Part shown: positions 1-60,068 of the stretch, piece by piece
Position numbering within the stretch: position 1 is the stretch's first letter
Layout of the letters: every line of letters starts with the position of its first letter
Assembly (NCBI RefSeq): GCF_025244705.1
Contig: NZ_CP104207.1
Span: forward strand, 2,976,001 to 3,040,000
Direction of reading: 5' to 3'
Origin: Sphingopyxis sp. PET50
GTDB lineage: Bacteria; Pseudomonadota; Alphaproteobacteria; Sphingomonadales; Sphingomonadaceae
DNA length: 64,000 nucleotides
The notes under the pieces: model-generated
What the model was told of the DNA's origin: nothing
Databases searched by the model: none
Seen by the model: the letters and a program-made list of their open reading frames with translations, nothing else
Program-made: the position numbers and the translations under genes

Positions 1-602
1 GCGTCGATCACGACGAGCGGCAGGCGCGGATTGGCCGGCCCCTCGATTTTGGGCAGCGCGACCGCGGGTTTCGGTTTGCCGATCGGCACCGTGACGCTGT
101 AGCGTTTTTCGGGCGGCTTGGCGCGGAACTGCGCCGCAGCGGCTGAAGCTGGAGACGGGGGCCGCGCGAGGCGCGCTGGAATTCGTCGGCGGAGACCGGC
201 TGGAGCCGGAACGACAGGCTGCGCCCGTCGGCGGCGAAGCGTGCGTTCGACACGAGCGCCGAGCTGGTCGAGGTCGAGCACGACGCGCGCGGTATCGGGA
301 CCCTGCTGGCCCTGGCGAACGGTGCGGACGAGCCCCGAGCCCTGCGGCGAACGGCTAGGCCTGCGCGCCCGCGATGTCGAGCGCGATGCGGTCGGGACCG
401 GCAAGCAGCAGCGTCGAAGCGCCCGCGACCAAATCGTCGAAGCGGACCGTGACGTCGCCGCCCGAAATCTCGATCGCGCCGATATTGCCCGCCAGAACCG
501 CCGCAGCGTGGCGCTCAGCGACGACAGGAAGAGCGTGGCGAGAAGCATGATGCGGTTATGCCGCCGGGCGGGACGATTGGTCCAGTCTTTATCCGAAAAC
601 AT
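1..602 (-). CDS. N-acetylmuramoyl-L-alanine amidase, N-terminal part, frameshifted and cut by the window edge
   Basis: Periplasmic cell-wall amidase (AmiC type), inferred from the order of segments. It has a short basic N-terminus (MFSDKDWTNRPARRHNR) and a hydrophobic anchor, then an AMIN-like beta domain (GNIGAIEISGGDVTVRF; ARVVLDLD; ALVSNARFAADGRSLSF), a proline-rich linker, and at the edge the run LPLVVIDA, which in this family continues into the zinc-binding GHGG motif. The frame breaks at least four times. Two of the breaks sit on 7-mers at 258-264 and 354-360 that become in-frame if read as GCCGGC; the other two, near the anchor and in the linker, I could not resolve. The start at 602 is the first ATG in frame with the anchor. 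It is divergent from rne. The catalytic domain lies outside the window. Confidence 0.7.
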   Translation of the reverse strand, partial: MFSDKDWTNRPARRHNRIMLLATLFLSSLSATLRRFWRAISARSRFRAATSRSASTIWSRALRRCCLPVPTASRSTSRARRPSRSPQGSGLVRTVRQGQQGPDTARVVLDLDQLGARVERTLRRRRAQPVVPAPAGLRRRIPARLARPPSPASAAAAQFRAKPPEKRYSVTVPIGKPKPAVALPKIEGPANPRLPLVVID

Positions 603-1230
603 CCAAGGCCACCTGCGGGTCATCACGATGAACCGGTTATTAGGCATGGCGCGTCAAGCCGCCGTGAAAAGGGAGGGTTAACCGGCCATTCAGCATGACC
701 GGACGGACGGCACCCCTTGCCGCTGCGGCCTGGCCATCCCCATATTTTTCCGGTGCTTGCTGTTGCCGTTCGATGACGCCGATGCTAGCACCCCGAACGC
801 TGACGGTGTCATCGCCTGACCCGTCGGGCCTTATGCGGGGAATGCGCCCGGCCGGAACCCGATTTGACGGACCGGACGGCAGCTCTCCCCCGGTGCCCGG
901 CAATCCAGGCGTGGCGACCTGCCGTCGGCCCACCCCGGATGACGGGGCAGCGCAGGACGATCCCGAACCGGTCGAATCGCGCTAGCCGGTCATCCCGCTG
1001 AACAGGTTGATGCCGCATGAGGCTTGCCATGCCCTCTTCTCTCCGCGACGCAGGCGCCTTCGCGCCTGGCGCCGGCCGGACGGAAGACCGCATGCGCGTC
1101 CGGAACCGGACGCGGGCCGCATCAGGCAATAACGTCTTTTTCCGTATGAACCCTATCGACCGCAGCCGTTCCGCAAGGACGGCCGCGGCCTTTTTTGTTG
1201 GCGCGCCGCGGCGCGCCTGGAGTGATAATA
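603..1230. other. Long intergenic leader between amidase and rne
   Basis: About 630 bases without a convincing gene. The short frames here have no family signature. The right half is rich in perfect or near-perfect inverted repeats, including CGCGTCCGG / CCGGACGCG at 1095-1114 and the terminator-like and SD-proximal hairpins listed separately. The left half (700-980) shows nothing I recognise. It probably holds the divergent promoters and a long rne 5' untranslated region. Confidence 0.5.
1160..1217 (+). promoter_or_regulatory. Terminator-like hairpin plus second hairpin just upstream of rne
   Basis: Positions 1160-1188 fold as CCGC/GCGG and GCCGTTCC/GGACGGC around a GCAA tetraloop, followed by a six-T tract at 1191-1196: the form of an intrinsic terminator. 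Immediately after it, GGCGCGCC (1200-1207) pairs with its own copy at 1210-1217, ending two bases before the GGAG ribosome binding site (1219-1222) of rne. RNase E is known in other bacteria to autoregulate through its 5' untranslated region. The structures are visible; an attenuation role is inference. Confidence 0.55.
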
Positions 1231-3843: not shown

Positions 3844-3913
3844 TGCATTCGATCGCATCGCGGCGATCGCGGCCTTGCCACCGGGCGTCCTGACCTCCAC
3901 AAGGCCAACATGG

Positions 3914-3929
3914 CTTCAGTTGAGGTTCA
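3914..3929 (+). promoter_or_regulatory. OmpR-type direct repeat upstream of the M48 protease
   Basis: CTTCA at 3914-3918 and GTTCA at 3925-3929 are 11 bases apart, one helical turn, in the same orientation. The same arrangement precedes the glycine-zipper gene (30551/30562) and lolA (60124/60135), all envelope genes. Direct repeats of this spacing are typical of OmpR-family response regulators; the regulator here is not known. Confidence 0.4.
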
Positions 3930-3954
3930 GGCGCTCGGCGCAAGGACGCATCCG

Positions 3955-5359
3955 ATGAATTTATCCGCTTCGCAGCGCGTCTTCAGCGCCGGTCCGTGGC
4001 GTCCGCTGGTCCGGATGCTGCTGACCTTCGTCGTCCTGCTCGCCGTCGCGGTGCGGCCGGTGGCGGCGCAGTCGATCCTGCGCGACGCCGAGACCGAGGC
4101 GCTGTTCCAAGACATGATGGACCCGCTGCTCGTCGCGGCGGGGCTGCAGCCCGGGCAGGTGCGCGTGCATCTGCTCGGCGACCGCAGCATCAACGCCTTT
4201 GTCGCGGGCAGCCAGGATATTTACGTCTTCAGCGGGCTGATCGAAGCCGCCGACAGCGCCGAAGAGGTGCAGGGCGTGCTCGCGCACGAGCTCGGCCATG
4301 TCATGGGCGGCCATGCGATCCGCGTGAACGAGGGCGCCAAGGCGGCGACCGGCATCTCGCTGCTCAGCCTGCTGCTCGGCGCCGCGGCGATCGCCGCGGG
4401 CGGCGGCGAGGCGGGCATGGGGATCATGATGGCGGGGCAGCAGGCCGCGCTCGGCAAGTTCCTGGCTTTCAGCCGCGTCCAGGAATCGACCGCCGATGCC
4501 GCGGGCGCGCAATATCTGTCGAAGGCGGGGATCAGCGGGCGCGGCAGCCTGGCCTTTTTCAAGAAGCTGCAGAATCTGGAATTCCGGTACGGGATCAAGC
4601 AGGACGACGATCAGGCCTATGGCCGCACCCACCCGATGTCGGGCGACCGCATCCAGGCGCTGCGCGAGGTCTATGTCGTCGATCCGGCGTGGGACAAGCC
4701 CGCCGATGCCGCGATCGAGGCGCGGTTCCAGCGGATCAAGGCCAAGCTGTCGGGCTATATCGCCGATCCCGAACGGACGCTGCGCAAATATCCCGAAAGC
4801 GACAAGAGCGTGCCGAGCGCGCTATGCGCGCGCCTATGCTTGGCACAAGAGCGCCTATCCGCAAAAGGCGCTGGCCGAAGTCGAAGGCCTGCTCGCGACC
4901 GATCCGACCGACCCCTATTTCCTCGAGCTCGAAGGCCAGGTGCTGCTCGAATCGGGGCGGCCCAAGGAGGCGATCCCGGCCTTGCGCAAGGCTGTCGCGG
5001 GATCGCGGTCGCAGCCGCTGATCGCCGCCACGCTGGGCCATGCGCTGATCGCGACCGAGGACCCGGCCAACTATCCCGAGGCCGAAGAGGTGCTGAAGAC
5101 CGCCGTCGCGCTCGATAACGAGAATCCCTTTGCCTGGTACCAGCTCGGCATTGTCTATGCGAACAAGGGCGATCAGGCGCGCGCCGCGCTCGCTTCGGCC
5201 GAGCGCTACAGCCTCGAGGGCGGACAGGCGGAGCTCGCGCTGCGCAACGCCGACATGGCGATGCTGGGCCTGCCCGAAGGGTCGCCCGACTGGATTCGTG
5301 CACAGGATATTTCGCTGGTGGCGCGCGCCGAGGTGGAACGGACGCGAAAACGGCGCTAG
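3955..5359 (+). CDS. M48 metalloprotease with TPR tail (BepA-like), frameshifted
   Basis: Periplasmic zinc metalloprotease of the BepA/YfgC type, which in related bacteria assists or degrades stalled outer-membrane proteins. The hydrophobic signal segment (MLLTFVVLLAVAVRPVAAQ) is followed by the M48 domain with HELGH at residues 111-115 and the third ligand in the QESTADAAG segment (E177). A C-terminal TPR region runs through KALAEVEGLLATDPTDPYFLELEGQ. The frame shifts once at 4812-4818 (GCCGAGC; reading GCCGGC restores a continuous protein). I chose the ATG at 3955 because AAGGA precedes it by about ten bases and a regulatory repeat lies over the alternative start at 3910. Confidence 0.9.
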
Positions 5360-5415
5360 ATTCGGCTGACGAATTCGGGAAATGCGTCGCCCCGCGCGGC
5401 GCATAAGGGCAACAA

Positions 5416-7049: not shown

Positions 7050-8865
7050 TTGGCGACGGTCACGCACGACGACGCGCTCGCCAACGCCCGCCGCCTGCTG
7101 AACGGCCAGCCCGCCGCCGCGCTCGAACAGGCGCGCGCGATCCTCGACGCGGTGCGCGGCATCCGCCGAAGCGCACCGGATCGCGGCGCAGGCGCTGCGC
7201 GCCATGGGACGCGAGGCGGAAGCGCAGGCGGCGTCGCTCGCTGCGGTATCGGCGGCGATCCACGACCCCGAAATGGTCGAGGCGGCGCTCGCCCTCGCCG
7301 AGAACCGCCTGCCCGACGCCGAAAGCGCGCTGCGGGCGCGGCTGAAGGCCGACGCGACCGACGTCGCGGCGATTCGCATGCTGGCCGAAGTCGCGGGGCG
7401 CATCGGCCGCTATGGCGACGCCGAAAAGCTGCTGACCCGCGCGCTCGAACTCGCGCCCGCCTTCGGCGCCGCGCGCGCCAATCTGGCGACGGTCCAGTAC
7501 AAGCAGAACCGCTTCGCCGACGCGGCCCGGACGCTCGATGCGGTGCTGGGCGAGGACCCGGACAATCCGGCGCACGCCAATCTGAAGGCGGCCGCGCTCG
7601 GGCGGATCGGCGGCTATGACGAGGCGCTGGCGCTGTACGAGGAACTGGTGGGCCGCTTTCCGGGGCACGCACGGCAGTGGATGAGCTATGGCCACCTGCT
7701 GAAGACGGTGGGGCGGCAGGAGGAGAGTATCGCGGCCTATCGCCGCGGCCTGTCGAACGAGCCCGGTCTCGGCGAAATCTGGTGGAGCCTCGCCAACCTC
7801 AAGACCATCCGCTTCGGTGCCGACGACCGCATGGCGATGGAGGATGCCCTCGCCGCGATCGAAGGCGGCGCGGAAAAGCGCGACGACGACCGGCTGCACC
7901 TGCATTTCGCGCTCGGCAAGGCTTATGACGACGCCGGCGAGGCGGAGCCCGCCTTTCGCCACTATGCCAGCGGCAACGCCATCCGCGCGCGCCAGCTCGG
8001 CCATGCGGCGGCCGACACGACGGCGCTCGTCGATGCGACGATTGCGGCATGCACGCCCGAATTCTTCGCCGGCCGCGCCGGCAGCGGCGACCCCAGCCCC
8101 GATCCGGTCTTCATCCTCGGCATGCCGCGCGCCGGATCGACGCTGGTCGAACAGATATTGGCGAGCCATTCGGCGATCGAGGGGACGATGGAGCTGCCCG
8201 ATATCCCGGCGCTCGCGCTCGGCTTCGGACGCGCGGCGAAGGGCGAAGGGCGGCGCTGGATCGACGCGCTCGCCGAGGCGCCCGCGGAGAAACTCGCCGA
8301 ACTCGGTGCGAAATATCTCGCCGACACGGCGGTGCAGCGCAAGACGGACAAGCCCTTCTATATCGACAAGCTGCCGAACAACTGGCTCTATGTTCCGCTG
8401 ATCCGGCTGATCCTGCCGAACGCGAAGATCATCGACGCGCGGCGGCATCCGCTCGACTGCTGCTGGTCCAATTTCCGCCAGCATTATGCCAAGGGCCAGG
8501 CGTTCAGCTACGACCTTGCCGGCATGGGCGCCTATTACCGCGATTATGTGCGGCTGATGGCGCATATCGATGCGGTGCAGCCGGGCGCGGTGCACCGGGT
8601 GATCCACGAGGCGCTGCTCGACGACCCCGAGACCGAGGTGCGCGCGCTGCTGCGCTTCCTGGGCCAGCCGTTCGAGGACGGATGCATGGCTTTTCACGCC
8701 AACGCCCGCGCGGTGCGCACCGCGTCGAGCGAACAGGTGCGCCGCCCGATCAACCGCGACGGTGTCGATCAGTGGCGGCCCTATGACGCGTGGCTCGGCC
8801 CGCTCCGCCAGGCGCTGGGGCCCGTGCTGGCCGCCTATCCGGGCGTTCCGGCCGGTTTCGAATAA
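7050..8865 (+). CDS. TPR-sulfotransferase family protein, frameshifted
   Basis: N-terminal tetratricopeptide repeats (about residues 5-300, e.g. AEKLLTRALELAPAFGAARANLA) are fused to a sulfotransferase domain with the PAPS-binding loop FILGMPRAGSTLVEQIL and the later IIDARRHPLDCCWSNF segment. Such TPR-sulfotransferases are common in sphingomonads next to TonB receptors, as here, but their acceptor substrate is unknown. The start is TTG at 7050, six bases after the previous stop. One frame break at 7154-7160 (GCGCGGC) is repaired by GCCGGC, giving ARAILDAVPASAEAHRIAAQ. Confidence 0.85.
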
Positions 8866-9004: not shown

Positions 9005-11390
9005 ATGCGCAAAATCACGACCGTTATGGCACGAGCTGAGCGGTGCATTGCTGGGAACGACGATACTTTGCACGTCGGGCGCCGCGCTCGCGCAGGATGC
9101 GAATACGGGGGGCGACCCCGACATCGTCGTCACGGCATCGAAGCGCGAGGAAAATCTGCAGGATGTTCCGATGGCGATCACCGCGATCGGCAACGAGCGG
9201 CTGAACGAGCTGCAGGTCAAGGAATTCCAGGATGTCGTGAAATTCCTGCCGTCGGTGACGATCCAGACCCTCGCCCCCGGTTTCAGCCAGGTCTATTTCC
9301 GCGGCGTCGCGTCGGGCGAGAATGCCAATCACTCGGCGTCGCTGCCGACCGTCGGCACCTATCTCGACGAAATGCCGATCACGACCATCCAGGGTGCGCT
9401 CGATATCCATGCCTATGATTTCGCGCGCGTCGAGGCGCTCGCCGGACCGCAGGGCACGCTCTATGGCGCGAGCTCGATGGCGGGCACGATCAAGCTCGTC
9501 ACCAATCCGCCCGACACCAGCGGCACCTATGGCTCGGTGGGCCTGGAACTCAATACGGTGAAGTCCGGCGACGTCGGCGGCGTCGCCGAAGGCTTCATCA
9601 ACGCGGCGCTCAGCGATCGCGCGGCGCTGCGCCTGGTCGGCTGGTACCGCCACGACGGCGGCTATATCGACAATATCGCCGGCAGCCGCACCTATCCCTC
9701 GAGCGGCATCACGCAGAACAACGCCGCACTGGTCGAAAAGAATTACAACGACGTCGACACCTATGGCGCCCGCCTCGCGCTCGGCATCGACCTCGACGAC
9801 GACTGGACGATCAAACCGACGCTGATGGGCCAGGTGCAGAAAGCCGACGGCAGTTTCGCACAGGAACGGTCGAGCGCGGTCACCCGCAAGCTGCAGACGG
9901 TCCAGTACAACCCCGAATCGAGCAAGGACAAATGGTTCCAGGCGGCGCTGACGATCGAAGGCAAGATCGGCAGCTGGGACCTGACCGCGACCGGCGGCCA
10001 TATGCGGCGCAAGACGACGGTCGAAAGCGACTATTCGGATTATGCCTATTTCTATGACGCGCTCTATGGCTATGGCGCCTATTTCACCGACAACAACGGC
10101 GATCTGGTCAGCCCGAACCAGTATATCCAGGGCATCGACCGCTACAAGCGCAGCTTCGCCGAATTGCGCATCGCCTCCCCCGCCGATGCGCGCATCCGCT
10201 TCATCGGCGGCGTCTTCTGGCAGCGCCAGGCGCATAATATCGAGCAGAATTACATCATCGACAATATCGGTGACGCGATCACCGTTCCCGGCACCGACAG
10301 CGATATCTGGCTAACCAAGCAGCTCCGCATCGACCGCGACTATGCGGCGTTCGGCGAGATCAGCTTCGACATCACCGACCAGCTGACGCTGACCGGCGGC
10401 GGCCGCGTCTACAAGTTCGACAACAGCCTGGTCGGCTTCTTCGGCTATTCGGACGGCTTCAGCGGCAGCACCGGCGTCGCCGGCTGCTTCGCCGGGCCCG
10501 TGGTCGCGGGGTCGCCCTGCACCAACCTCGACAAGAGCACGAGCGACACCGACTTCATCCACAAGCTCAACCTGACCTACAAGATCAGCGACAACGCGCT
10601 CGTCTATGCGACCTGGTCGCGCGGGTTCCGGCCGGGCGGCATCAACCGGCGCGGCACGCTGCCGCCCTATGGTCCCGACACGCTCGACAACTACGAGATC
10701 GGGTGGAAGACCAATTTCGGCCCGCTCCGCTTCAATGGCGCCATCTATCAGGAGGACTGGAACGACATCCAGCTTTCCTTCCTCGGCGCCAACGGGCTGA
10801 CCGAGATCCGCAGCGCCGGCATCGCACGCATCCGCGGTTTCGAGGTCGACATCGGCTATCGCGCCGGCGGCTTTTCGCTCAACCTCGGCGGCAGCTACAA
10901 CGACGCTGAAATCCGGCGCGACTTCTGCGCGATCGCCAATCCGCAATTCGACTGCACGATCGACCCGCCGGGCCAGACCAACGATCTGCTCGCGCCCGCG
11001 GGTTCGCGCCTGCCGGTCACGCCCAAGTTTAAGGGCAATGCCGTCGCGCGCTACGAATGGCCGGTCGGCGACGTCGACGCGCATGTCCAGTTCGCGGTCA
11101 ACCATACCGGGCAGCGCCGGTCCGACCTGCGCACCTTCGAAAACGCCATCGTCGGCAATTTCAAGGCCTATACGACCGCCGACGTCAGCATCGGGGTGAA
11201 GGGCGAAAGCTGGAGCGGCGAGCTGTTCGCGACGAACCTGTTCGACAGCAGGGGCGTGATCAACAGCGCGGTGCAATGCGGCGAATCGATCTGCGGCGAT
11301 CCGTTCGGCGGCAGCACGACCGGCGGCGTCTTTTACGACAATGTCATCCGCCCGCGCCTGATCGGGATCAAGGTCAGCAAGGACTTCTGA
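9005..11390 (+). CDS. TonB-dependent outer-membrane receptor, frameshifted in the signal peptide
   Basis: Outer-membrane active transporter. An AAGGGGGG ribosome site precedes ATG 9005. Restoring GCCGGC at 9035-9041 (seen as GCTGAGC) gives one continuous signal peptide, MRKITTVMARAGGALL... to GAALAQ. Then come the TonB-box region and plug (DIVVTASKREENLQDVPMAI; GPQGTLYGASSMAGTI) and a 22-strand barrel ending in the terminal aromatic strand LIGIKVSKDF. The plug-barrel signature is clear, but the ligand is not identifiable. Context: TPR-sulfotransferase upstream and an APC permease 13 bases downstream suggest uptake of a compound finally handled as an amino acid or amine. Confidence 0.93.
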
Positions 11391-17678: not shown

Positions 17679-19245
17679 CACCACCCCGGCGGCGTTGTGC
17701 CCCGGCGCGCCGGTGACGCCGCCGCCGGGGTGCGTGCCCGCGCCGCACATGTAGAGGCCCTTCACGGGACCGCGATAACCGCCGTTGCCGAGCACCGGGC
17801 GCGCCGCCCAGAGCTGGTCGAGCGTCATGTTGCCGTGCATGATGTCGCCGCCGACTAGGCCGAACTTGCGTTCGAGCCCCTTGGGCGACAGGCGGGTGCT
17901 GCCGACGATGCTGGCGCGGAAGCCGGGGGCATGAGCTTCGACGGTGTCGATGATCGCATCGGCGGCGGCTTCCTCCTCGTCGTCCCAGTCGCGACCGTCC
18001 GGAAGCTCGGGGGCGAACTGCTGACAGAAGAGGCTGGCGACGTGGCAACCCGGCGGCGCGAGGCTGTCGTCGACGGTCGAGGGGATGAGCATCTCGACGA
18101 TCGGCTTCTTCGACCAGCCGTACTGCTTCGCGTCGAGGAAGGCGCGGTCCATATAGTCGAGCGTCGGGGCGAGGATGATGCCCGACTGGTGATGCTCGCC
18201 GGGTTCGGGCAAGCAGGTGAATTTGGGCAGTTCGCTGAGCGCGACATTCATGCGGAAGGTGCCGCTCCCCGCCTTGAAGCCGCGGATGCGGCGCTGGAAA
18301 TCGCCGGGCAGGTCGGACGCGTCCATCAGCCGTTCGTAGAGCAGCTTCGGTCCGACATTGGCGATGACGCGCGCGGCGGCGATTTCCTCGCCGCCGGCGA
18401 GACGCACGCCCGCGGCCTTGCCGCCGTCGACGAGCACCTTTTCGACCGGGCTTTCGAGGCTGATCTCGACCCCCATGTCGCGGCAGACCTTCGCCATGAT
18501 CTCGGTGATCTTGCCCATGCCGCCGACGCTGTGGCCCCACGCACCCTTCTTGCCGTTCACTTCGCCGAAGACGTGGTGGAGCAGGACATAGGCGCTGCCC
18601 GGCGTGTCGGGGCTGGCATAATTGCCGACCACGGCGTCGAAGCCGAAGGCGGCCTTGACCGCCTCGCTTTCGAACCAGCTACCCAGCATCGTGCGCGCCG
18701 ACTTGGTGAAGAGGTCGAGCACGTCGCGCTGCTGTTCGAGGCTGAGGGTCGCGAAGCGCCGCCCCTGCCGCGCGCCGTCGATCAGCGTGCGCAGCCCTTC
18801 GCCGACATTGGGCGGCACGCGCAGCGCGAGGTCGCGGAGCAGTTCGGCGACATTTTCGAGCGCGTCATAATAGGCGGGCAGCACCTCGGCATCATGATTC
18901 GAGAATTTGCGAAACTCGGCCTGGGTGCGCTCGAGACCGCCACCGAGCTTCAGATAGGTTCCATCCTCCTGCGGCAGGAAATTGCTGATCGGCCGTTCGA
19001 TCACGCGATAGCCATGGTCGGCGAGCTTCATGTCCGCGATGACCTTGGGCTGGAGCAGGCTGACCGTGTAACTGGCGACCGAATTGCGGAAACCCGGCGC
19101 GAATTCCTCGGTCACCGCGGCGCCGCCGACGACATCGCGCGCCTCGACGATGCGGACCTTGAGGTCGGCTTTCGCCAGATAGAAGGCGCAGACGAGGCCG
19201 TTGTGGCTAGGCGCCGATAATCAGGGCGTCATAGGCTTTGGTCAT
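17637..19245 (-). CDS. FAD-dependent oxidoreductase, phytoene desaturase/CrtI-like family, frameshifted
   Basis: After repair the protein begins MTKAYDALIIGAGHNGLVCAFYLAKADLKVRIVEAR, a Rossmann FAD-binding motif of the NAD(P)/FAD oxidoreductase family related to carotenoid desaturases and retinol saturases. The C-terminus carries GLYMCGAGTHPGGGVTGAPGHNAA, the FAD-contacting motif of the same family. The break at 19206-19212 (GCTAGGC on the plus strand) puts a TAG directly after LIIGA; GCCGGC restores GAGHNG. The start overlaps the upstream monooxygenase stop (ATGA). No carotenoid genes are nearby; with the neighbouring monooxygenase and Rieske oxygenase it more likely belongs to a catabolic cluster. 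Confidence 0.85.
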
Positions 19246-20460
19246 GAGACGTCTTTCACAAGCGGGGATTGGACATGCTGGCGGCCGAAGCCGAGGCCAA
19301 GGACGCGGCCGGGGATGCGGCGTAGCAGCGGGATGGCGTCGAGCAGGCGGACCGCGAAGGGCACGCGGGTGATCCGGCCGCGCAGCATCGGTTCGACGAC
19401 CCGCCGGTGCGCGAAGCGCTGGAGCGCCTGCATCTTCGTGGTCGGCTTCCAGCGGCGCTCCTGTACCTTGGCGAGCAGCGGATCGGGGTCAGCGCCGGCG
19501 GCGAGCGGCGCGGCGAGGATGTTCGCCGCCGCGACCGCGTCCTGCACGGCGAGGTTGATGCCGACGCCGCCGACGGGCGACATCGCATGCGCGGCATCGC
19601 CGATCGCGAGCAGCCCAGGGCGCGACCAGCGCGTCAGCCGGTCGAGCGCGACCGAGAGCAATTTCACATCGTCGAAGCTTTGGATCGCGCCGATTCCCGC
19701 CGCGAGGCCAGGCGCGATCTCGACGATCCGTTCGCGGAACGCAGCGATGCCGCGCGCTTCGATCGGCGCGAAGCCGCCCTTCTCGATGATCCGGGCGCAC
19801 TGCCAATAATCGCCGCGCGGGATCGCGACGACCATGCCGCCCTTGTCGATCGTGCCGAGCGCGACCTCCGACATGTCCATCCCCGCAGGCACCGGAACGC
19901 GGAACCACAGCACGTCCATCGGCGCGCCGAGGTCTTCGAGCGGCAGCGCGGCGGCGGCGCGTAGTACCGAACGGCGGCCGTCGGCGGCGATGACCAGCCG
20001 CGCGGGCAGCGCCTCGCCGCTCGCCAGCATCACGCCACTGACGCGGTTCGCGGAATCATAGGTCAGCCCGGTCGCCTCGGTCGACATGCGCAGGTCGAAG
20101 GCCGGATAGTGCCTCCCCTGCCCCGCGATGAAATCGAGCAGATCCCATTGCGGCATCATCGCGACGAAGGGCGCCGCGACGGGCAGATGCTTCATCGTCG
20201 CGACCGTGTAGCGCCCGCCCAGAAGATTGAGCGTCATCGTGTCGATCGCGGCGTGGGGTTCCTTCAGAAGTTCATCCAGCAACCCGATCTCGTTGAACAG
20301 TTCGAGCGTCGAGGGATGCACCGTGTCGCCGCGGAAATCGCGCAGGAAGTCGGCGTGCTTTTCGAGCACGGTCACGCGCACTCCGGCGCGCGCGAAGAGC
20401 AACCCCGCGACCATCGCCGGCAGGGCCGCCGCCGACGATGATGACAGGATGCTCGCTCAT
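19242..20460 (-). CDS. FAD-dependent aromatic-ring monooxygenase family protein, frameshifted
   Basis: Class A flavoprotein monooxygenase. It has the N-terminal GxGxxG motif in IIVGGGPAGMVAGLLFARAG, the middle DGRRSVLRAAA motif (FAD/NAD contact) and the C-terminal GDAAHAMSPVGGVGINLAVQDA motif. Start MSEHPVIIVGGG at 20460. The frame shifts once near 20415-20421, where one extra base precedes GCCGGC; removing it joins the two parts perfectly. The stop overlaps the next gene's start by four bases. It is probably co-expressed with the Rieske oxygenase upstream, although a palindromic repeat separates them. The substrate is unknown; an aromatic hydroxylase is the usual role. Confidence 0.85.
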
Positions 20461-24810: not shown

Positions 24811-25974
24811 TTTGCTTCGGGCGGATGCGCCGCCTTCCACTCCATCGCGGCGCGGACGCGGCGTTCGACCGAGGGGTGCGAATAGAAGAGGAACTCCTCG
24901 ATCCCGTTCGGGCGCGGATTGCGATATTCGGCGGTCTTGACCAATGCGCTGGCGAGCGCGTCGGGCAGGTTAACCGTTTTCAGCGAATAGGCGTCGGCGG
25001 CGCTTTCGTCGGTGCGCGAGAGCGTGTTGAGGATCGGCTGCGCGAGGAAGGCGAACAGCGACAGCAGGAACATCATCACCGGGAAGCCGCGCGGATCGCC
25101 GATCGCGGCGTCGCTGCCGAAGGCGCGCGCGACGCGCGGGAAGAGCCGGTCGGCGAGGAAGAAGAGCAGCACCGCGAGCAGCGAAAAGACCGCCACCCCG
25201 ATCCAGATATGGCCGAGCACATAATGGCCGATCTCGTGCCCCGTCACCGCCTTCACCTCGTCGAGCGAGGCGCCCTTCAGCGCGACGTCGGAGATGGCGA
25301 TGCGCGCCGAATTGCCGATGCCCGACACATTGGCGGTGAAATTATTCGACTGGCGCGAGCCGTCGTACAGGAAGATGCGGCCCGGCTCGATCCCCGCCTC
25401 CTTCGCCTGCACCACCAGCGCATCGCGGACCGGGCCGAGCCGGAACGGGCTTATAATCGTTGAACAGCGGCTCGACGACGATCGGCGCGGCGAGCAGCAG
25501 CAGCGAGATGGCGAAGGCCGCGAGCGCGCCCGACCAGATCCACCAGCGCCGCCCCGCGCGGCGGATCAGCGCATAGATGCCGACAAAGAAGAGCGCGCCG
25601 AACAGCGTCGAGATGACGGTGCCGATCGCCCCTTGGCCCAGCCAGTCGCCGAGCGGCTGGCTGGTCCGGCCATAGGCGGTCTCGCGCCACCAGCCCTCGT
25701 ACAGATTCCAGGGCAGGGTGAGAATCGCCGAAAGCAGCAGAAAGGCGGCGCAGACGAGGAAGGTGCGCAGCACAAAACCCCGCTTGCCGAGCCGCGCCTC
25801 GATGCGGTCGAGAATGCGCAGGCGGACGAAGAGGAAGGTGACGAGCGCCGCGACGACGACGTTCCAGAAACCGAGCCATTCGGCGCCGCGCGTATAGGCG
25901 GCGGCCTTGGCGAGTGCGGCGGGACCGAGCGCGTCGATGTATGCGGCGGTGGCGGCGGCGGGATCGAAGGTCAT
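24807..25974 (-). CDS. M48 family membrane metalloprotease (Ste24/CAAX protease-like), frameshifted
   Basis: Integral-membrane zinc protease. Several hydrophobic segments surround a C-terminal catalytic domain with HEIGH in KAVTGHEIGHYVLGH and the downstream zinc ligand in RTDESAADAYSL. The family covers Ste24-type CAAX proteases and HtpX-like quality-control proteases; with no prenylation in bacteria, a quality-control role is likelier. The frame breaks at 25434-25440 (GCCGAGC on the plus strand). Restoring GCCGGC gives FNDYKPVPAGPVRDALVVQA without a gap. It is followed by nth with a four-base overlap. Confidence 0.88.
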
Positions 25975-27385: not shown

Positions 27386-28091
27386 TTGCGCCACATACAG
27401 AATATCGTCATCCTGACCGGCGCCGGGGTCTCGGCCGAGAGCGGCATCGACACGTTTCGCGACGGCGGCGGATTGTGGGAACAGCACCGGGTCGAGGATG
27501 TCGCGACGCCCGAGGCGTTCGCGCGCGACCCCGACCTCGTCCATCGTTTCTATGACGCGCGGCGCGCGGCGATCCAGACGAAGGTGCCCAATGCGGCGCA
27601 TGAAGCGCTGGCGCGGCTCGATGCGGGGTGGCCGGGCGAACTGCTGATCGTGACGCAGAATGTCGACGACCTGCACGAACGCGCGGGGGCGAAGCGGCTG
27701 ATCCATATGCATGGCGAGCATCTGAAGGCCTGGTGCGCGGGATGCGACGGGCGGAGCGGCTGGACGGGGACGCTGATCGACCGGCCGGTGTGCCCGGCGT
27801 GCGGCGTGGCGGGCCATCTGCGCCCCGACGTCGTGTGGTTCGGCGAGATGCCCTATCATATGGACACCATCTATCGCGCGCTGAACCGCGCCGACCTGTT
27901 CGTGTCGATCGGGACGTCGGGCGCGGTCTATCCCGCCGCGGGCTTCGTGCGCGAGGCGCGGGCGAGCGGGGCGCGGACGCTGGAACTCAATATGGAGCCG
28001 AGCCAGGGATCGCACTGGTTCGACGAGGCACGGCACGGACCGGCGGGGCTGCTGGTGCTAGGCGTGGGTGGAGGAAGTTTTGGCGAATTAA
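27386..28091 (+). CDS. cobB: Sir2-family NAD-dependent protein deacylase, frameshifted near the end
   Basis: Cytosolic NAD-dependent lysine deacylase. It has the NAD motif GAGVSAESGIDTFRDGGGLW, TQNVDDLHERAG, the catalytic His in LIHMHGEH, a four-cysteine zinc site (CAGC ... CPAC) and the late NAD contact GTSGAVYPAAG. The start is TTG at 27386; the nearby ATG at 27381 is out of frame. Near the C-terminus the 7-mer GCTAGGC (28057-28063) throws the frame into the following repeat. Reading GCCGGC gives the natural end LLVPAWVEEVLAN and a TAA at 28089. Divergent from dapB. Confidence 0.93.
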
Positions 28092-31115: not shown

Positions 31116-31170
31116 GGAATAGCGGGCTACGTTTGAAAGCGGGCGGGAGAGCCCGTTGGGATTGAGCCAC

Positions 31171-31300: not shown

Positions 31301-31425
31301 TGTCCGCTCCCCACCCACAACCGTCGACCATCCCGCCGGGGTTGCCATCCTGCGGCCCCACGCCTAGTCTCGCCGCCAAGTGCACGTCCGGTCTTCGGGC
31401 GCGTGAAAAACAGGTAAGAAGTGCC

Positions 31426-41332: not shown

Positions 41333-42302
41333 TCAGCTTCGGATGAAGGCCAACATATCCCTGTTGATCACGTCGGCATGGGTCGCCGCCATGCCGTGCG
41401 GATAGCCTTCATACGCCTTGAGCGTGCCCTTCGCGAGCAGCTTGACCGACAGCGGCGCCGAATCCGCGAACGGCACGACCTGGTCGTCGGTTCCATGCAT
41501 CACGAGCGTCGACACCTGGATTTTCTTCAGATCCTCGGTGAAGTCGGTTTCGGAGAAGGCCTTGATGCAGTCGTAATGCGCCTTGGCGCTGCCGACCATG
41601 CCCTGGCGCCACCAGTTCTGGATCAGCCCCTGGCTGACCTTCGCGCCCTCGCGGTTGAAACCATAGAAGGGACCCGACGCGACATCGAGGTAGAATTGCG
41701 AGCGATCCTCGGCGAGCGCCTTGCGGAAGCCATCGAACACCTCGACGGGCAGGCCGCCGGGGTTGCTCGCCTTCTTGACCATGACCGGGGGGACCGCTCC
41801 GACCAGGATCAGCTTCGCGATCGTTCCCGCCCTGGCGCGCGCGGCATAGTGCGCCGCCTCGCCGCCGCCGGTCGAATGGCCGATATGCACGGCGCCCTTG
41901 AGGTCGAGCGCGGCCACCAGCGCCGCGACGTCCGCGGCATAGCTGTCCATCTCGTTGCCCGCGTCGGTCTGCGTCGAGCGTCCATGACCGCGCCGGTCGT
42001 GGGCGATCACGCGATAGCCCTGCGCGAGGAAAAACAGCAGCTGGTTGTCCCACTCGTCGGCGGTCAGCGGCCAGCCATGATGGAAGACGAGCGGCTGCGC
42101 ATCGCGCGGCCCCCAGTCCTTGTAAAAGATCTGCGCGCCGTCGCTGGCGGTAATGAAGTTCATCGGATGGGCTCCTTGGTTTGCGGTGGGGGGAATTGCG
42201 CCAAGGCTCACAGCCTAGCCAACCGAAGCCGCTCGCAAGGACAACGCCGCCACCGGCGACGAACATCCGGCGATCGACCATGAAATCATGAAGTAGGGAC
42301 AT
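41333..42302 (-). CDS. Tat-exported alpha/beta hydrolase, haloperoxidase-like, frameshifted
   Basis: Non-heme chloroperoxidase-type hydrolase. The nucleophile is in HIGHSTGGGEA; the acid is in MHGTDDQVVPF; the histidine in YEGYPHGMAATH. Repairing GCCTAGC (42213-42219) to GCCGGC extends the protein upstream without a gap to MSLLHDFMVDRRMFVAGGG ..., a twin-arginine signal (DRRMF followed by a Gly/Val/Ala hydrophobic run), with GGAGG eight bases before this ATG (42302). Without repair the protein would seem cytosolic and start in the linker. Substrate unknown; perhydrolase or esterase activity is usual. Neighbours point to peroxide stress. Confidence 0.88.
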
Positions 42303-42395: not shown

Positions 42396-44295
42396 TTATA
42401 CGGGGGATGCGCTCGCGCTATGCGAAGGTAGGGGCGACCCCGGCTCCCGGACCTCATCGCCCTTCGCCATGGGCAGGGTAAAGGAGAAGCGCGCGCCGAC
42501 CGGGTCGCCATTTTCGGCGCGCAAGCGGCAGCCGTGCGCCTCGACGATCGAGCGGCAGATCGCGAGGCCCATTCCCATTCCCTGCGGCTTCGTCGTGAAG
42601 AAGGCCTCGCAGGCGCGATCTGGTTCGGCCAGCCCGGGTCCCGTATCGGCGACAACGATGCGTAGCCCCGCATGCTCGGGCACCGCCTCGAGGCTCAACC
42701 GCCGCCGGTCCGCCGGCATATCGGCCATCGCTTCGATCGCGTTGCGGAGGATGTTGAGGAGAACCTGCTGGATCTGGACCGGGTCGATCGCGACCAGCGG
42801 CAGGTCGGGGGCGAGCCGAATGTCGAGCAATATCCGGCAGCGCGCGAGTTCCTCGGCGAGAAGTTCGCGCACCTCCTCGACGAGCGAGCCGAGCGCCGAT
42901 GGCGTGCGCGGACCCGCGGTCCGGCTGAAGAGCGCGCGGATATGGCTGACGATGTCGGCGGCGGACTGGGCGCTTCGCGCGATCCGTTCGACGATCGCCT
43001 GCGCGCGTGCGACATTCGGAGGGTCGGAAGCGAGCCAGCGCCGACAGGCCTGGGCGTTGGTCATGATGGCGGCCAGCGGCTGGTTGACCTCGTGCGCGAT
43101 CGAGGCCGAAAGTTCGGCGAGGCTGGCCGCTTCGCTGGCCCGTGCAAGCTTGTCCTGCGCCTGCCGCAATTCCTCCTGCGCGCGGACCTGATCCTCGATA
43201 TCGAGGCAGACCCCGTTCCATTGCGCGATCGCGCCATCCTCGCCCCGCATCGCGGCCAGGCGGGTCTCGATCCAGCGATACGTCCCGTCGAAGCGGCGTT
43301 GCCTGTGGGTGAGCGCGTAGGACCTTCCGGTGCGCAGGGAATGATCGAGGCGCTGGCTTACCCGGGCGAGGTCGTCGGGGTGAATCATTGCGGCGAGAAG
43401 GCTCTGCAGTCGCGGCTCGCCGGGACGGTCCTTCCCTGCGACGTCGAAGCCGAGAAACTCCCGCATGTGGCGGCTGAAATAGACGGGCTTGCCTGCGGGG
43501 GTCATGCACCAGATCAGCAGCCGGCGCGGTCTCGATCAGCTCGCGCAGCGAGCGTTCGCTTTCGCGCAGGGCTTCGTCGGTCTTGCGGAAGACGTCGATG
43601 TCGAAGCCGGTGCCGTACCAGCCGGTGACGCGGCCGTCCCCGGCCCGCGCCGGGCGAATGGCGAACCGATGCCAGACATAGTCGCCGCTCGCGCGCAGGA
43701 CGCGATATTCATAGTTGAACGGCTCGCCGGCGCGCATGCAGCGGCGCAGTTCGGCAGCCGCGCCCTCATAATCGTCGGGGTGCACACCTTTTTTCCAGCC
43801 GAGGTCGCCGCCGTCGATGAAGGCGCCGCCGCCCAGCGGAGCGTTCAGGTCCTCCAGCGTCATCGCGATCGAGGTCTGCGCCATGGGCGTGGTATAGGTG
43901 AAATGTCCTTCGGCATCGAAGGCAAAGGCCGCGCCACAGAGATCTTCGATGATCCGCGCCGCGCGGACGGCCTCGCGGGTTTCTCCGAGCGATGCGGCCA
44001 GGGTCCAGATGTCGTCGGGGCCGTGGACGATCGGCGGGATGTCGACGCTGGCGGAGTAGGCGGGTTCGGCGCGATATTCGCGCCAGCGCCACGTGCCGCC
44101 CGCCTCGCGGTAACGATAGCCGACGACCTGCGGCACGCCGCTCCAAAAGGCCCGCGCCTCCGCCTGTGCGATGGCGTCGCGATCGTCAGGGTGAACCGGA
44201 TCCGATGTTTCGCCGCGCGCCTTCACGCGGCGCTTTCCGAAAAGCGCGCTCACGGCGATCCCGATGCCGGTGAAGAGGCCGACCGGCGCGATCAT
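42396..44295 (-). CDS. PAS-domain sensor histidine kinase 1, frameshifted
   Basis: About 630 residues after repair. A short N-terminal hydrophobic segment (VGLFTGIGIAVSALFG), three PAS/PAC units (e.g. YRYREAGGTWRWREYRAEP; HRQRRFDGTYRWIETRLAAM), then the HPK4-type dimerisation domain with phospho-acceptor His in SIAHEVNQPLAAIMTNAQAC and the ATPase boxes LNILRNAIEAM, DTGPGL and GMGMGLAICRSIVEAHG. HEVNQPLAAI is typical of FixL/DctB-like kinases. One break at 43517-43525 beside GCCGGC; repair gives ETAPALIWCMTPAGKPVY. Its ATG overlaps the stop of kinase 2 (ATGA). No heme-PAS His can be asserted. Confidence 0.88.
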
Positions 44296-46308
44296 GCTGC
44301 CGGTCGCGCGCGCGGCAGAACGACGCGGAATTCGGCGCCGCCGCCGGACGGGTTGGACGCCGACACCTCGCCGCCGTGGGCGGCGACGATCGACTGGCAG
44401 ATGGCGAGCCCGATGCCCATGCCCTGCGCTTTCGTGGTGAAAAAGCCGTCGAAGATATGGTCGAGATGCTCGGGCGCGATTCCCGGTCCGCTGTCGCGCA
44501 GGGTGAAGACCACGCCGCCCGCCGCGTCGGTGGCGGTCGCGACCAGGATTTCGCGTTCGGCCTCGCCCAGCCCCTCGACCGCCTGCACGGCATTGATCAG
44601 CAGGTTGACGATCACCTGCTGAAGCTGGATGCGGTCACCGACAATCGGCGGCAGCCCGCGGGCATAGGTGGTCGCCACGCGGATGGCGCGCGTTTCGATC
44701 TCGTGGCGGACGAAGAGCAGGCTTTCCTGCACGACCTCGTTGAGCGCGAGCGGCACCGCCTCGGGCGCCTGCTTGACCGCCATGCCGCGAATGCGCCGGA
44801 CGATGTCGTCGGCGCGCCGCGCGCCGGCCGCGATGCGCGCGGTCAACTGGGCGACCTTGCCGATGTCGGGCTCGTCGCGGGCGAGCCAGCGCAGGCTCGT
44901 TTCGGCGTTGGTCATGATCGCGGCGAGCGGCTGGTTGACCTCGTGCGCGATCGAGCTGGTGAGCTCGCCGAGCATCGAGACGCGCGCGGCGTGGCTGAAA
45001 TCGGCCTGAAGCTGCCGCAGCTGCGTTTCCATGCGCAGCCGCTCGGTCACGTCTTCGAGACTGAAGATGGTGGTATCGAGCTCGATCAGCGGTTCGGGGT
45101 AGGTGACCGAGAAGCGCACGTCGAGGACGCGTCCGTCGAGCGTGCGGACCTTCATGAACTCGCTGTAATTCCTGCGCCCGCTGAACCGGCCGATCATGAC
45201 GCGGCGCAGCGAAGCCGGGCTTTCGGTGAACAGGTAGCCGACGGGGCGGATCAGGTCCTGCACGCCCGCACCGCCGATGAGTTCGATCGCGCAGCGATTG
45301 ACGTCGGTGACCGGGACGCTGGTCGCGGCAAGCTCGACCAGTTCGGGATGATCGTCGAGATAGCGCTCGAAGTCGGTGACGCCGCGCGAGCGCAGCTCGG
45401 CGTAGATCTTGCCCATGTGGCTGGCATCGACCTGCCAGAGCGCGACCGGCATATAATGGATGAGCTTGCGGTAGCGCGCTTCGCTCGCCCGCAGGAACAG
45501 ATAGGAGCGATCGTCGTCGGCCGCGCCGTTCACGGTCACGAACAGCCGCCCCGGCCGATCGTCGCCCGCGCGCCACACCGTGACGAGGGGATCGCGCAGG
45601 ATTCCGTCGGAGGTGAGGCGGCGTTGACAGCCCCCTCCGTTGCTGTCGCGAAGCGCCTCGACGATGAGTTCGGCGAGGATCGCCCGGCTTTCCACCGGCC
45701 AGAAAGCGGCGACCGACTGGCCCGCCATCAGCGCGCGGCCGCGATTGCCGCCGACCAGCCGCGCGGTTCGCTCATTGACCTCGACGATCCGCGCGGTCTG
45801 GACCAGGCGGCGGTAAAGAGCGTCGCGTTCGCTTCCTTGGGCGCCGTCCGCGGGCGCTGCGATGAGGGAGAGGATTTCGGCGGCCGGTGCGACGTCGATT
45901 TCCCAGCTCGCGGCCATCAGCCGGTCGGGAACGGGGCCGTCCGGCCTATTCCCGGCGCGCGCATATTCGACGACGTCGCGCGGGGCCCCGCTCGCGTCGT
46001 AGCGCAGATGTCGCCGTGTCTCCACGACGCGGACATCGCCATCGCGGGTGAGTCGCCGGACGCGTCCTTCCCAGACGCCTTCCTGCATCAATTGCGACCA
46101 GGCGTGCGCCTCGTCCTCGGGCGCGGGCGAGAGCCGTGCGACGTCGGCGCCGCGCACCGCCAGCGCTGAGCCATCCGAAGAGCCGCTCGGCGGCGGGGTT
46201 CCAATAGCGTACCCTCCCGCGCGGATCGAAAATGACGATGCTTTCGGATGCGAGTTCGGCGATCCTCGCCTCGTCCTCGGCATGCGAATGGAGCAGCGCC
46301 GCGGTCAC
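44292..46308 (-). CDS. PAS-domain sensor histidine kinase 2, frameshifted
   Basis: Begins with GTG at 46308, overlapping the receiver protein's stop (GTGA). First PAS: SESIVIFDPRGRVRYWNPAAERLFGWPA..., restored by reading GCCGGC at 46165-46171 (seen as GCTGAGC); LFGWPA is a classic PAS motif, strong support for the repair. Further PAS/PAC units follow, then the kinase core with phospho-acceptor His in SSIAHEVNQPLAAIMTNAET and boxes VNLLINAVQAV, DSGPGIAP, GMGIGLAICQSIVAAHGG. About 30-35% of its core is visibly parallel to kinase 1, so the pair probably arose by duplication. Confidence 0.88.
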
Positions 46309-54620: not shown

Positions 54621-55533
54621 GTGGCCACCCTCGGTCTGAACCCGCAAGAGAAGGAAGCCGTCGAAGCCTTCCGCCGCGATGTCGTCGAGCCGTCGATGAC
54701 GAGCCTCGTCATCCTCGATTTCTGGGCCGAATGGTGCGGGCCGTGCAAGCAGCTGGCGCCGGTCCTGGAGAAGGTCGCCGCCGATTATGCCGACAAGGGC
54801 GTCATCCTCGCCAAGGTCGACGTCGATGCGAATCGCTTCATCGCCTAGCCAGTTCCAGGTCCAGTCGATCCCGACCGTCTATGCGATCTTTCAGGGCCAG
54901 CCGGTCGCCAACCTGACCAACGCGCGCACCGAAAGCCAGCTCAAGGCGATGCTCGACCAGCTGCTCGCACAATTGCCGATCGAAAGCGCAGCGAGTGCGC
55001 GCGCGGTCGAGATCGCGCCGCTGATCGAGATGGGCGAAGGCGTGCTGTCCGAGGGTGACGGGACACGCGCCGTCGGCATCTTTTCGCAGATCGTCGAGAT
55101 GGCGCCCGACAATGCCGCCGCGCATGGCGGGCTGATCCGCGCACTGCTGCTGGCGGGCGACACCGAGGGCGCGGGGCTTGCGCTCGACGCGGTTCCCGCC
55201 GAGATCGCGGGCGACCCCGCCATCGCGCAGGCGAAGAGCGCGCTGGCGCTCGCCGCCGACGCGCCCGACGCGGGCGAGCTCGCCGCCTTCGAGGCGGCGG
55301 TCGCGGCGAACCCCGGCGATCATCAGGCGCGATTCGACCTGGCCGCGGCGCAGATCGGCGCGGGGCAGCGCGACGCCGCCGCCGACAATCTGCTGCATAT
55401 CGTCGCCGCCGACCGCGAATGGCAGGACGGCGCGGCTCGCGCGAAATTGCTGTCGCTGTTCGAGGCGGTGGGACTCGAGGACCCCTGGGTCGCGGCGCAG
55501 CGCCGCCGCCTGTCGCTGATCCTGTTCGGCTGA
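54621..55533 (+). CDS. Thioredoxin domain-TPR co-chaperone (YbbN/CnoX-like), frameshifted
   Basis: GTG start with TAGGAG upstream. The thioredoxin fold has W-C-G-P-C in [22 protein letters not shown] and the cis-Pro [11 protein letters not shown], followed by a TPR-like helical tail of about 180 residues ([36 protein letters not shown]). E. coli CnoX (YbbN) has this layout but lacks the CxxC, which is present here. GCCTAGC at 54843-54849 puts a TAG after RFIA; GCCGGC restores [14 protein letters not shown]. The stop overlaps the next start (TGATG). Confidence 0.92.
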
Positions 55534-57661: not shown

Positions 57662-57760
57662 AGTCTTTCCATAACCCACAGCCGCGTTCGGGCACGCGCT
57701 TGACGGGGAGTCCGGCGCGTGCGCATATCGCCGCGTTAACCACAGGGGACCGATTTCAGC

Positions 57761-60068
57761 ATGGCCAGCCGCAAGCCCATCGCCGCAAAGGCCGATTGGC
57801 GCACCGTTTTCAAGGCGAGCATCGCGCGGTCGCTGGTGATCGCGGCGGCGGTGGCGCTGGGCGGGTTCACCCTGTTTCTGGCGCTCGCGCTGCTGACCTA
57901 TCACAGCACCGATCCGTCGATCCACACCGCGGCGGGCGGCGACATCGCGAACTGGATGGGCCTAGCCGGGGGCGTCGGTCGCGGGCATATTGCTCGGGGT
58001 CGGGGGTGTCGCCACCATATTGCTCGTGCCCTTGCTGGGCCTCGTCGCCTGGCGGCTGTGGACGGGCGAGGCGCAGCCCTATTGGAAACGCCAGCTCGCC
58101 TATGTCTTTGCCGCGATCCTGCTCATCGGCCTGGGCGCGCAGCTCTGGGCGCCCGACAGCAATATTCCGCTGCCCGCCGGGCTGGGCGGGATATTGACCT
58201 TGCTCGTCGGCGGCGCGATCGACCCCTGGTTCGACCGCATCCCCGAGCCCGGCGCGGCGCTGGTGCGTTTTGCGGCGATCCTGCTGCTGATCGGCACCGG
58301 CCTGTGGCTCGCCTGGCGCGCGCTGCGGCTCGAACCCGGCTGGTGGTCGCGGCTCCGGCTGCCTGCGGCGGAGCGCGGGCGCGTTGTCGCCCCCGCCCCG
58401 CCCGCCGCGGCCAAGGCGCCGAACCTGATGGAACGGGTGATCCGCCCGCGCGCACGCGCCGAGCCGAGCGACCGCGCGCCGCCCGAAATCGCCGACCCCG
58501 CAACCCGCGCGCAGCCTTCGAAGCCGCGCCCCAAGCCGCAGACCGAGCTGTTCACCAATTATCAGATGCCGTCGATCGACCTGCTCGCGCCGCCGCCGGC
58601 CGCGCCGACGGGGCAGATCGACAAGGCGGGGCTCGAGCGCAATGCGAGGCTGCTCGAATCGGTGCTCGAGGATTTCCAGGTCAAGGGCGTGATCACCGCG
58701 GTGCGCCCCGGCCCCGTCGTCACCATGTACGAACTCGAGCCCGCGCCGGGCACCAAGGCGAGCCGCGTGTCGAACCTGGCCGACGATATCGCGCGCAACA
58801 TGTCGGCGCTGTCGGCGCGCATCGCGCCAATCCCCGGACGCACGGTGATCGGCATCGAACTGCCCAATGCGCACCGCGAATCGGTGGTACTGTCCGAAAT
58901 GATCGGCAGCGCGCTGTTCCAGGAACAGACGGGCGCGCTCCCGATCATCCTCGGCAAGAATATCAGCGGCGACCCGGTCATCGCCGACCTCGCGCCGATG
59001 CCGCACCTGCTGATCGCGGGTACGACCGGCTCGGGTAAGTCGGTCGGCCTCAACGCGATGATCCTCTCGCTTCTCTATCGCCTCGGTCCCGACCAGGTGA
59101 AGATGATCATGATCGACCCCAAGATGCTGGAACTCAGCGTCTATGACGGGATTCCGCATCTGCTCGCCCCCGTCGTGACCGAGCCCAAGAAGGCGATCCG
59201 CGCCCTCAAATGGGCGGTCGAGCAGATGGAGGACCGCTATCGCATGATGTCGAGCCTGTCGGTGCGCAACCTTGCGGGCTACAACGACAAGGTGCGCGGC
59301 GCGCTCGCCAAGGGCAAGTCCCTGGGGCGCCGTGTCCAGACCGGCTACGACCCCGAGACCGGCCAGCCGGTCTATGAGGAAGAGACGCTCGACTATGCGC
59401 CGCTGCCGCAGATCGTCGTCGTCGTCGACGAGCTCGCCGACCTGATGATGACCGCGGGCAAGGAGGTCGAATTCCTGATCCAGCGGCTGGCGCAGAAAGC
59501 GCGCGCGGCGGGCATCCACCTGATCCTCGCGACGCAGCGCCCGTCGGTCGACGTCATCACCGGCGTCATCAAGGCGAATTTGCCGACGCGCATCAGCTTC
59601 AACGTGACGTCGAAGATCGACAGCCGCACGATCCTGGGCGAAGCGGGTGCCGAGCAATTGCTCGGCAAGGGCGACATGCTGTACGTGCCCGGCGGCAAGC
59701 AGATCACGCGCATCCACGGCCCCTTCGTCTCCGACGACGAGGTGCGGCTCGTCGCCGACCATTGGCGCGGCCAGGGCCAGCCCGACTATATCGAAAGCGT
59801 CACCGAGGAACCCGAGGACGGCGGCTTCGCGATGGAGGGTGCCCCCGCGGGCGGCGACAGCGCCGAGGACCGCATCTATGCCAAGGCGTGCCAGATCGTC
59901 GTCGAGAGCCAGAAGGCCTCGACGAGCTGGCTGCAACGGCAGCTGCGCATCGGGTACAACAGCGCCGCGAGGCTGATCGAGCGCATGGAGGAGGAGGGAT
60001 TGGTCAGCCCCCCTAATCATGTCGGTCGGCGCGATGTGCTGACCGACCAATATGGGCAGCAACGGTAG
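57761..60068 (+). CDS. ftsK: DNA translocase FtsK, frameshifted
   Basis: Septal DNA pump for chromosome dimer resolution. Four to five N-terminal membrane helices (VIAAAVALGGFTLFLALALL; GILLGVGGVATILLVPLLGL; ...), a Pro-rich linker, then the alpha/beta motor with Walker A LLIAGTTGSGKSVGLNAMI and Walker B IVVVVDELADLMM, and the gamma winged helix (AKACQIVVESQKASTSWLQRQLRIGYNSAARLIERMEEEGLV). GCCTAGC at 57960-57966 breaks the frame after the first helix; GCCGGC gives NWMGRPGASVAG and a continuous 768-residue protein. FtsK is normally essential, so a true null is unlikely. Confidence 0.97.

What the first reader, a model, noticed from the sequence alone, without database searches (positions are those of the whole stretch)
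258..57966. Frame breaks across the window fall on one hexamer, GCCGGC, each gaining one base
I found 18 genes or gene regions whose frame is broken by exactly one extra base where writing GCCGGC restores a continuous, family-consistent protein. The sites are 258-264, 354-360, 4812-4818, 7154-7160, 9035-9041, 19206-19212, 20415-20421, 25434-25440, 28057-28063, 29952-29958, 30928-30934, 36533-36539, 39516-39522, 42213-42219, 43517-43525, 46165-46171, 54843-54849 and 57960-57966. Most are GCCTAGC/GCTAGGC, GCCGAGC/GCTCGGC or GCTGAGC. Repairs recreate diagnostic motifs: GAGHNG in the flavoprotein, LFGWPA in a PAS domain, a twin-arginine signal peptide, GLAGHE in a glycine zipper. ftsK and other core genes are hit, so biological null alleles are implausible. 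Many other GCCGGC sites are intact (for example near 2428 and 5944). The simplest reading is that a modified base in GCCGGC causes consensus errors, so the organism would carry a GCCGGC-specific modification (methylation or another chemistry). A site-specific insertional process is the less likely, more exotic reading.
Basis: partly seen in the sequence, partly recalled or inferred. Interest (0 to 1): 0.9.

Follow-up and report, generated by a model that had tools for sequence, protein, structure and literature searches.

The report
Sequencing misreads at a methylated hexamer
Many genes of this environmental bacterium look broken by one extra base at GCCGGC, most probably because its own restriction-modification system marks that site and the sequencing machine misreads it, so the genes themselves are very likely intact.

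Summary
Motif-blind frameshift-aware alignment to relatives finds a +1 break at all 18 places, one of them misplaced by about 8 bases. Relatives show 9 +1 breaks in 167 kb, none with the 7-mers. GCCGGC has the highest +1 rate of all hexamers with at least 25 placements, 14 of 113.

His prediction of a GCCGGC modification system also held: the genome's only PF00145 C5-methyltransferase match lies beside an open NaeI-family endonuclease gene and vsr. NaeI cuts GCCGGC (PMC7653180). Sole-copy ftsK, and yidC outside the window, are hit, so real mutations are implausible.

Best reading: methylcytosine in GCCGGC caused consensus errors in a long-read assembly, a documented class of artefact with another motif and enzyme. 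Platform and methylation were not observed, and intact GCCGGC is not unusually rare for the genus. Biologically ordinary; useful as a warning and as a readout of R-M specificity.

The parts
258..264 (.). +1 break, reads GCCGAGC; the one relative seen reads GCCGGC; no Pfam family; coding strand not settled
   Evidence: (one locus)
354..360 (.). +1 break, reads GCTAGGC, same gene region as 258
   Evidence: one locus
4812..4818 (+). +1 break, reads GCCGAGC, in an M48 peptidase/TPR gene
   Evidence: three loci; family of the relative's protein
7154..7160 (+). +1 break, reads GCGCGGC, in a TPR-sulfotransferase gene
   Evidence: (two loci)
9035..9041 (+). +1 break, reads GCTGAGC, in a TonB-dependent receptor gene; weak support
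   Evidence: (two loci)
19206..19212 (-). +1 break, reads GCTAGGC where three relatives read GCCGGC, in a flavin amine oxidase family gene
20415..20421 (-). +1 break beside an intact GCCGGC (20416), in an FAD_binding_3 gene
   Evidence: (three loci)
25434..25440 (-). +1 break, reads GCCGAGC, in an M48/CAAX protease gene
   Evidence: (one locus)
28057..28063 (-). +1 break, reads GCTAGGC where three of five relatives shown read GCCGGC; no Pfam family; weak support
29952..29958 (.). +1 break, reads GCTCGGC; weakest support, strand not settled
30928..30934 (+). +1 break, GCCTAGC from 30927, in a glycine-zipper gene; 12 loci agree, some from one genome
36533..36539 (+). +1 break, ATGCGGC form; no Pfam family
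   Evidence: (one locus)
   Evidence: (five loci)
42213..42219 (-). +1 break, reads GCCTAGC, in an alpha/beta hydrolase gene
43517..43525 (-). +1 break beside an intact GCCGGC (43520), in a PAS histidine kinase gene
   Evidence: (seven loci)
46165..46171 (-). +1 break, reads GCTGAGC, in a second PAS histidine kinase gene
   Evidence: (ten loci)
54843..54849 (+). +1 break, reads GCCTAGC where the one relative seen reads GCCGGC, in a thioredoxin-TPR gene
57960..57966 (+). +1 break, reads GCCTAGC, splits ftsK: 4TM domain in one frame, motor and gamma domains in another
   Evidence: break at 57969 with 3 of 5 relatives; only FtsK motor over the cut-off in the genome; relatives have frames of 792-837 codons there

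Best explanation
The organism (probably a Sphingopyxis) carries a NaeI-type restriction-modification system whose C5-methyltransferase marks GCCGGC (inferred from the gene pair). The assembly is a single contig read from native DNA, probably by nanopore (inferred). At a share of GCCGGC sites, by my estimate about a third, the modified base distorted the signal so that the consensus gained one base inside or next to the hexamer (misreading inferred; the extra bases are shown). The genes themselves are intact in the cell.
For: Only +1 breaks are in excess: 54 in 151 kb here against 9 in 167 kb of relatives, while -1 breaks are alike, 22 and 24. GCCGGC has the highest +1 rate of hexamers with at least 25 placements, 14 of 113 with no -1; GGCGCC 1 of 147, CGGCCG 3 of 178, GCGCGC 2 of 443. 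Reverse direction: 0 of 116. The only PF00145 match adjoins an open NaeI-family gene; NaeI = GCCGGC (PMC7653180, passage). Core genes are hit: sole FtsK motor; outside the window YidC, a fumarate hydratase, ClpA. Completeness is 87%, while 34 of 39 genus mates have 99-100. Errors at methylated motifs are documented (PMC6591954, PMC10687267, PMC11610573; passages).
Against: No reads, raw signal or platform label were available. Intact GCCGGC is not unusually rare for the genus: GCCGGC/CGGCCG 0.74, 12 of 39 genus mates lower. GCCGAGC relative to its reversed control is the highest of 40 genomes, but only at z 2.0. Ten other family genomes with NaeI show no clear GCCTAGC excess, which fits only if they were sequenced or polished otherwise. 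Of 37 held-out +1 breaks, 6 lack even the widened 7-mer set. Some other hexamers also have raised +1 rates: CCGGCC 12 of 164 and CCGGCG 19 of 378, which can overlap GCCGGC, GCCGGA 4 of 74, CGCCCC 8 of 166, and small counts such as CCACAA 2 of 26. A published case I looked at had mismatches, not indels, as the main error (PMC10687267).
Confidence: 0.93

Rival explanations
1. Ordinary long-read error (homopolymers, low depth) with no tie to a modification.
For: Single-contig assembly of low completeness. A few breaks lie in runs of one base, such as the +1 at genome position 2714203 and a -1 with perfect flanks at 2760924.
Against: Errors concentrate on one hexamer, -1 breaks are not in excess, and the other GC-only palindromes tested lie at 0 to 3.3%.
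Confidence: 0.03
2. Real insertions: nicking, cutting or repair at NaeI sites adds one base in the cell or in this clone.
For: A NaeI-family endonuclease and a Vsr gene lie side by side, and the lesions are at NaeI's site.
Against: The sole FtsK motor and YidC would be lost. Ten other NaeI-bearing genomes are 96-100% complete and lack a clear excess.
Confidence: 0.02
3. A variant of the best reading: the same misreading, but from another base change at GCCGGC (N4-methylcytosine or a hypermodified base made by a gene other than the PF00145 one).
For: PF01555 methyltransferase genes are present: one CcrM-like, one of unknown site, one in two pieces.
Against: The NaeI-linked gene is of the C5 family with an open frame, and a close relative of it adjoins NaeI in 10 of 11 family loci, this one included.
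Confidence: 0.05
4. Programmed frameshifting or genuine pseudogenes.
For: None found beyond the broken frames.
Against: Relatives' frames run through the places compared; many unrelated genes on both strands are hit; relatives' own loci show few +1 breaks.
Confidence: 0.01

Closest known systems
Nanopore consensus errors at Dcm sites, CCWGG (PMC6591954, passages)
   Same: 5-methylcytosine at a fixed motif dominates the consensus errors of an assembly
   Different: Other motif and enzyme; here the visible form is a one-base gain
Modification-mediated errors in Listeria at GCAGC and GCTGG (PMC10687267, passages)
   Same: Lineage-specific modification inferred from the errors' motif
   Different: There mostly mismatches; here +1 errors and a NaeI-type gene pair
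NaeI restriction-modification system (PDB 1ev7/1iaw; PF09126)
   Same: Endonuclease of the NaeI family with a C5-methyltransferase gene in front
   Different: Distant in sequence from the solved NaeI (phmmer 102 bits); cleavage and methylation untested

Membership tests
Modification-mediated consensus error | Errors concentrate on one short motif | tested here: met
Modification-mediated consensus error | A cognate modification gene in the genome | tested here: met
   C5-methyltransferase gene beside a NaeI-family endonuclease gene; specificity inferred
Modification-mediated consensus error | Core and single-copy genes hit, so not biological | tested here: met
Modification-mediated consensus error | Errors vanish in short reads or amplified DNA | not testable with these tools
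   no reads available
Modification-mediated consensus error | Assembly made from nanopore native DNA | not testable with these tools
Modification-mediated consensus error | Deficit of the intact motif | tested here: inconclusive
   37% below G001 in 464 kb, yet 12 of 39 genus mates have a lower GCCGGC/CGGCCG ratio
NaeI-type R-M system | NaeI endonuclease family domain | tested here: met
   PF09126 E 1.1e-54 and PDB 1ev7 E 3.2e-28
NaeI-type R-M system | Catalytic D-x-K of the PD-(D/E)xK fold | tested here: met
   VDVK aligned with VDCK of NaeI; that this is the catalytic motif is recalled
NaeI-type R-M system | C5-methyltransferase gene adjacent | tested here: met
   overlapping genes; an enzyme at least 69.9% identical beside NaeI in 10 of 11 family loci, this one included
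NaeI-type R-M system | Recognises and protects GCCGGC | not testable with these tools
   inferred from family and error motif only
Homopolymer error | Length errors in runs of one base, deletions prominent | tested here: not met
   -1 breaks as in relatives

The most novel reading that the evidence does not exclude
The extra bases are real: in this lineage the NaeI system, with its endonuclease and Vsr nicking at modified GCCGGC, leaves one-base insertions at its own sites across the chromosome.
Probability: 0.02. Interest if true: 0.95.

Novelty: new member of a known kind. Interest (0 to 1): 0.35.

Why it matters
A held species genome carries false frame breaks, by rough estimate at a thousand sites or more (18 in 64 kb of 3.8 Mb; or 22-52% of GCCGGC sites, with 3,706 intact ones left), and annotation pipelines are likely to call many of its genes pseudogenes. 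Conversely, a motif-blind scan of frame breaks read out the site of a restriction-modification system from the finished sequence alone, and the gene pair then found fits it. The same scan could flag other damaged assemblies and guess their methylation motifs.

Tried and rejected
Whole-genome k-mers as proof: the GCCGGC deficit against G001 (415 against 662) agrees with the 36% estimate, but the genus-wide ratio varies so much (0.47-1.43) that I do not count it. GCCGAGC is common everywhere, so its excess is weak (z 2.0). The first control run on relatives gave zero coding bases because a script variable overwrote the codon table; one search is the repaired run. The 400 kb sample matched G001 only in part (31% of the 464 kb at 60% identity or more; 151 kb of coding DNA aligned), so counts are from what aligned. 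There were 126 break clusters at flank identity 0.5 and 90 at the 0.65 used for counting. At 0.65 some of the 18 listed places fall out, and 17 +1 clusters are left in the window, 7 with the six 7-mers. The widened 7-mer set was drawn up after seeing and is not a held-out test; the six-member set is, for the 400 kb. I thought nrdB beside the R-M genes might be broken; one search shows an open 391-codon frame, so I dropped that. Literature searches; I looked at passages of seven papers, no whole paper. In those listings I saw no title naming GCCGGC or NaeI as a nanopore error motif; most subscription papers are not held. PMC4081073 prints NaeI's site as GCC|CCG, which I take as a misprint of GCC|GGC.

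Full report
Setting. The window is bases 2976001-3040000 of a single-contig genome of 3,796,965 bases with completeness 87.04. Of 15 loci found by a protein search among named genomes, 10 are Sphingopyxis, 3 Sphingomonas and 1 Novosphingobium, so this is probably a Sphingopyxis, an environmental alphaproteobacterium (inference).

Check of the observation. I built a protein-to-DNA aligner that allows frame changes and ran relatives' open frames against the window without giving it any motif. It found a +1 break at 17 of the 18 listed places. The 18th, in ftsK, came out at 57969 with three of five relatives once their ftsK had been fetched; for the other two the script chose a wrong frame, and each of the three also shows small frame changes near the gene's start (57696-57752). 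Base-level comparison shows at least one relative reading GCCGGC at 258, 19206, 28057, 30928 and 54843; at most other places the relatives differ there and GCCGGC is an inference. At 39516 the break was mislocated: the extra base precedes the GCCGGC at 39509. At 20416, 39509 and 43520 the hexamer is intact and the extra base lies beside it. Counts of supporting loci include loci of one genome twice in some cases.

Held-out test. I took 400 kb upstream of the window and 400 kb of relative G001. At flank identity 0.65 or more, 54 +1 breaks were found, 37 outside the window and 17 inside, in 151 kb of alignable coding DNA. With a wider set of forms chosen after seeing the data it is 31 of 37 outside, against 8.1%. 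Of 36 breaks of other kinds, 1 carries the six. The same pipeline on relatives' loci (G001, G004, G016 and three named genomes) gave 9 +1 and 24 -1 breaks in 167 kb, none with the six. So the excess is of +1 breaks and of this genome among those compared.

Motif-blind hexamer scan. In DNA alignments I asked, for each hexamer in a relative, how often this genome is one base longer there. GCCGGC ranks first among hexamers with at least 25 placements: 14 of 113, none shorter; overall 759 of 112,604. The seven other GC-only palindromes tested lie at 0-3.3%. CCGGCC (12 of 164) and CCGGCG (19 of 378), which can overlap GCCGGC, and GCCGGA (4 of 74) and CGCCCC (8 of 166) are raised too. The reverse question, hexamer in this genome and relative longer, gives 0 of 116. 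Of the 113, 27 are intact, 71 substituted at equal length, 14 one longer and 1 two longer. If the intact and lengthened ones are the sites that truly are GCCGGC, 15 of 42 (36%, interval 22-52%) are misread.

Genome-wide counts. GCCTAGC occurs 314 times (82.7 per Mb); 39 genus mates have 34.8 per Mb on average, at most 49.2, an excess of about 180. GCCGAGC relative to its reversed control is the highest of 40 genomes, but only at z 2.0. Intact GCCGGC is not unusually low for the genus: 12 of 39 are lower. These counts alone would not prove the case.

The predicted modification system. A search of the genome for C5-methyltransferases (PF00145) gave one match, at 2469712. Its 318-codon frame overlaps a 297-codon open frame that matches the NaeI endonuclease family (PF09126, E 1.1e-54) and the solved NaeI (1ev7, E 3.2e-28); a vsr gene follows. 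NaeI is given as GCCGGC in PMC7653180 (passage). PMC8565308 lists GCCGGC for Aeromonas hydrophila NEB724 among m5C motifs, with '(3)', which I take as the third base (passage). PF09126 is found in 11 of 397 family genomes, among the genus members drawn in this one alone. A methyltransferase at least 69.9% identical adjoins NaeI in 10 of the 11 loci, this one included.

Why not biology. Broken genes include the only FtsK motor over the cut-off, whose membrane and motor domains lie in different frames. Outside the window the 37 breaks fall in 31 relatives' proteins; I searched 18 of the 31. They include YidC, a class I fumarate hydratase family protein, ClpA and PabB, each over a curated cut-off, and a CCA-adding-enzyme-like protein below it. 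A cell without FtsK and YidC is not credible (essentiality recalled). Ten other NaeI-bearing genomes are 96-100% complete and show GCCTAGC at 24-64 per Mb, much like eight family genomes listed without NaeI, 22-61 (sizes rounded), so owning the system does not by itself create the lesions. One of the ten (G134) has a divergent NaeI and another methyltransferase.

Prior knowledge. Consensus errors at methylated motifs are documented: with then-current ONT basecallers about 70% of the errors in a Klebsiella assembly were in Dcm motifs (PMC6591954, passages); five Listeria genomes had 1533-5670 mismatches, traced to short motifs (PMC10687267, passages); Klebsiella and other species show ambiguous positions with motifs thought to be strain-specific (PMC11610573, passages). 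What is particular here is the motif, the enzyme pair and the one-base-gain form. That nanopore was used is my inference.

Verdict. Most likely an artefact with a biological cause: it shows which site the organism marks, not broken genes. Known kind, new member.

Noticed in passing
window 31140-31325: An element of about 130-185 bases with at least eight further copies in the genome at 92-94% identity, and found in several genus mates at 82-98%.
   Followed up: no
464 kb sample including the window: CCCGGG is very rare (74 seen, 210 expected from its sub-words; ratio 0.35 against 0.65 in G001), and 1 of 30 aligned CCCGGG sites of relatives is kept. Possibly a second avoided site.
   Followed up: no
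G000:C1:2760924 (in L055): A -1 break with perfect flanking identity in the clpA-like gene, at a run CCCCGGG, about 145 bases before its +1 break. Perhaps a homopolymer error.
   Followed up: no
G000:C1:1900379-1901102 (L089, L090): A PF01555 methyltransferase match split in two pieces, one with a TAA inside.
   Followed up: no
L086:3357-3764: A vsr mismatch endonuclease gene follows the NaeI gene here; within the short flanks held it was seen in 3 of the 11 NaeI loci, this one included.
   Followed up: partly
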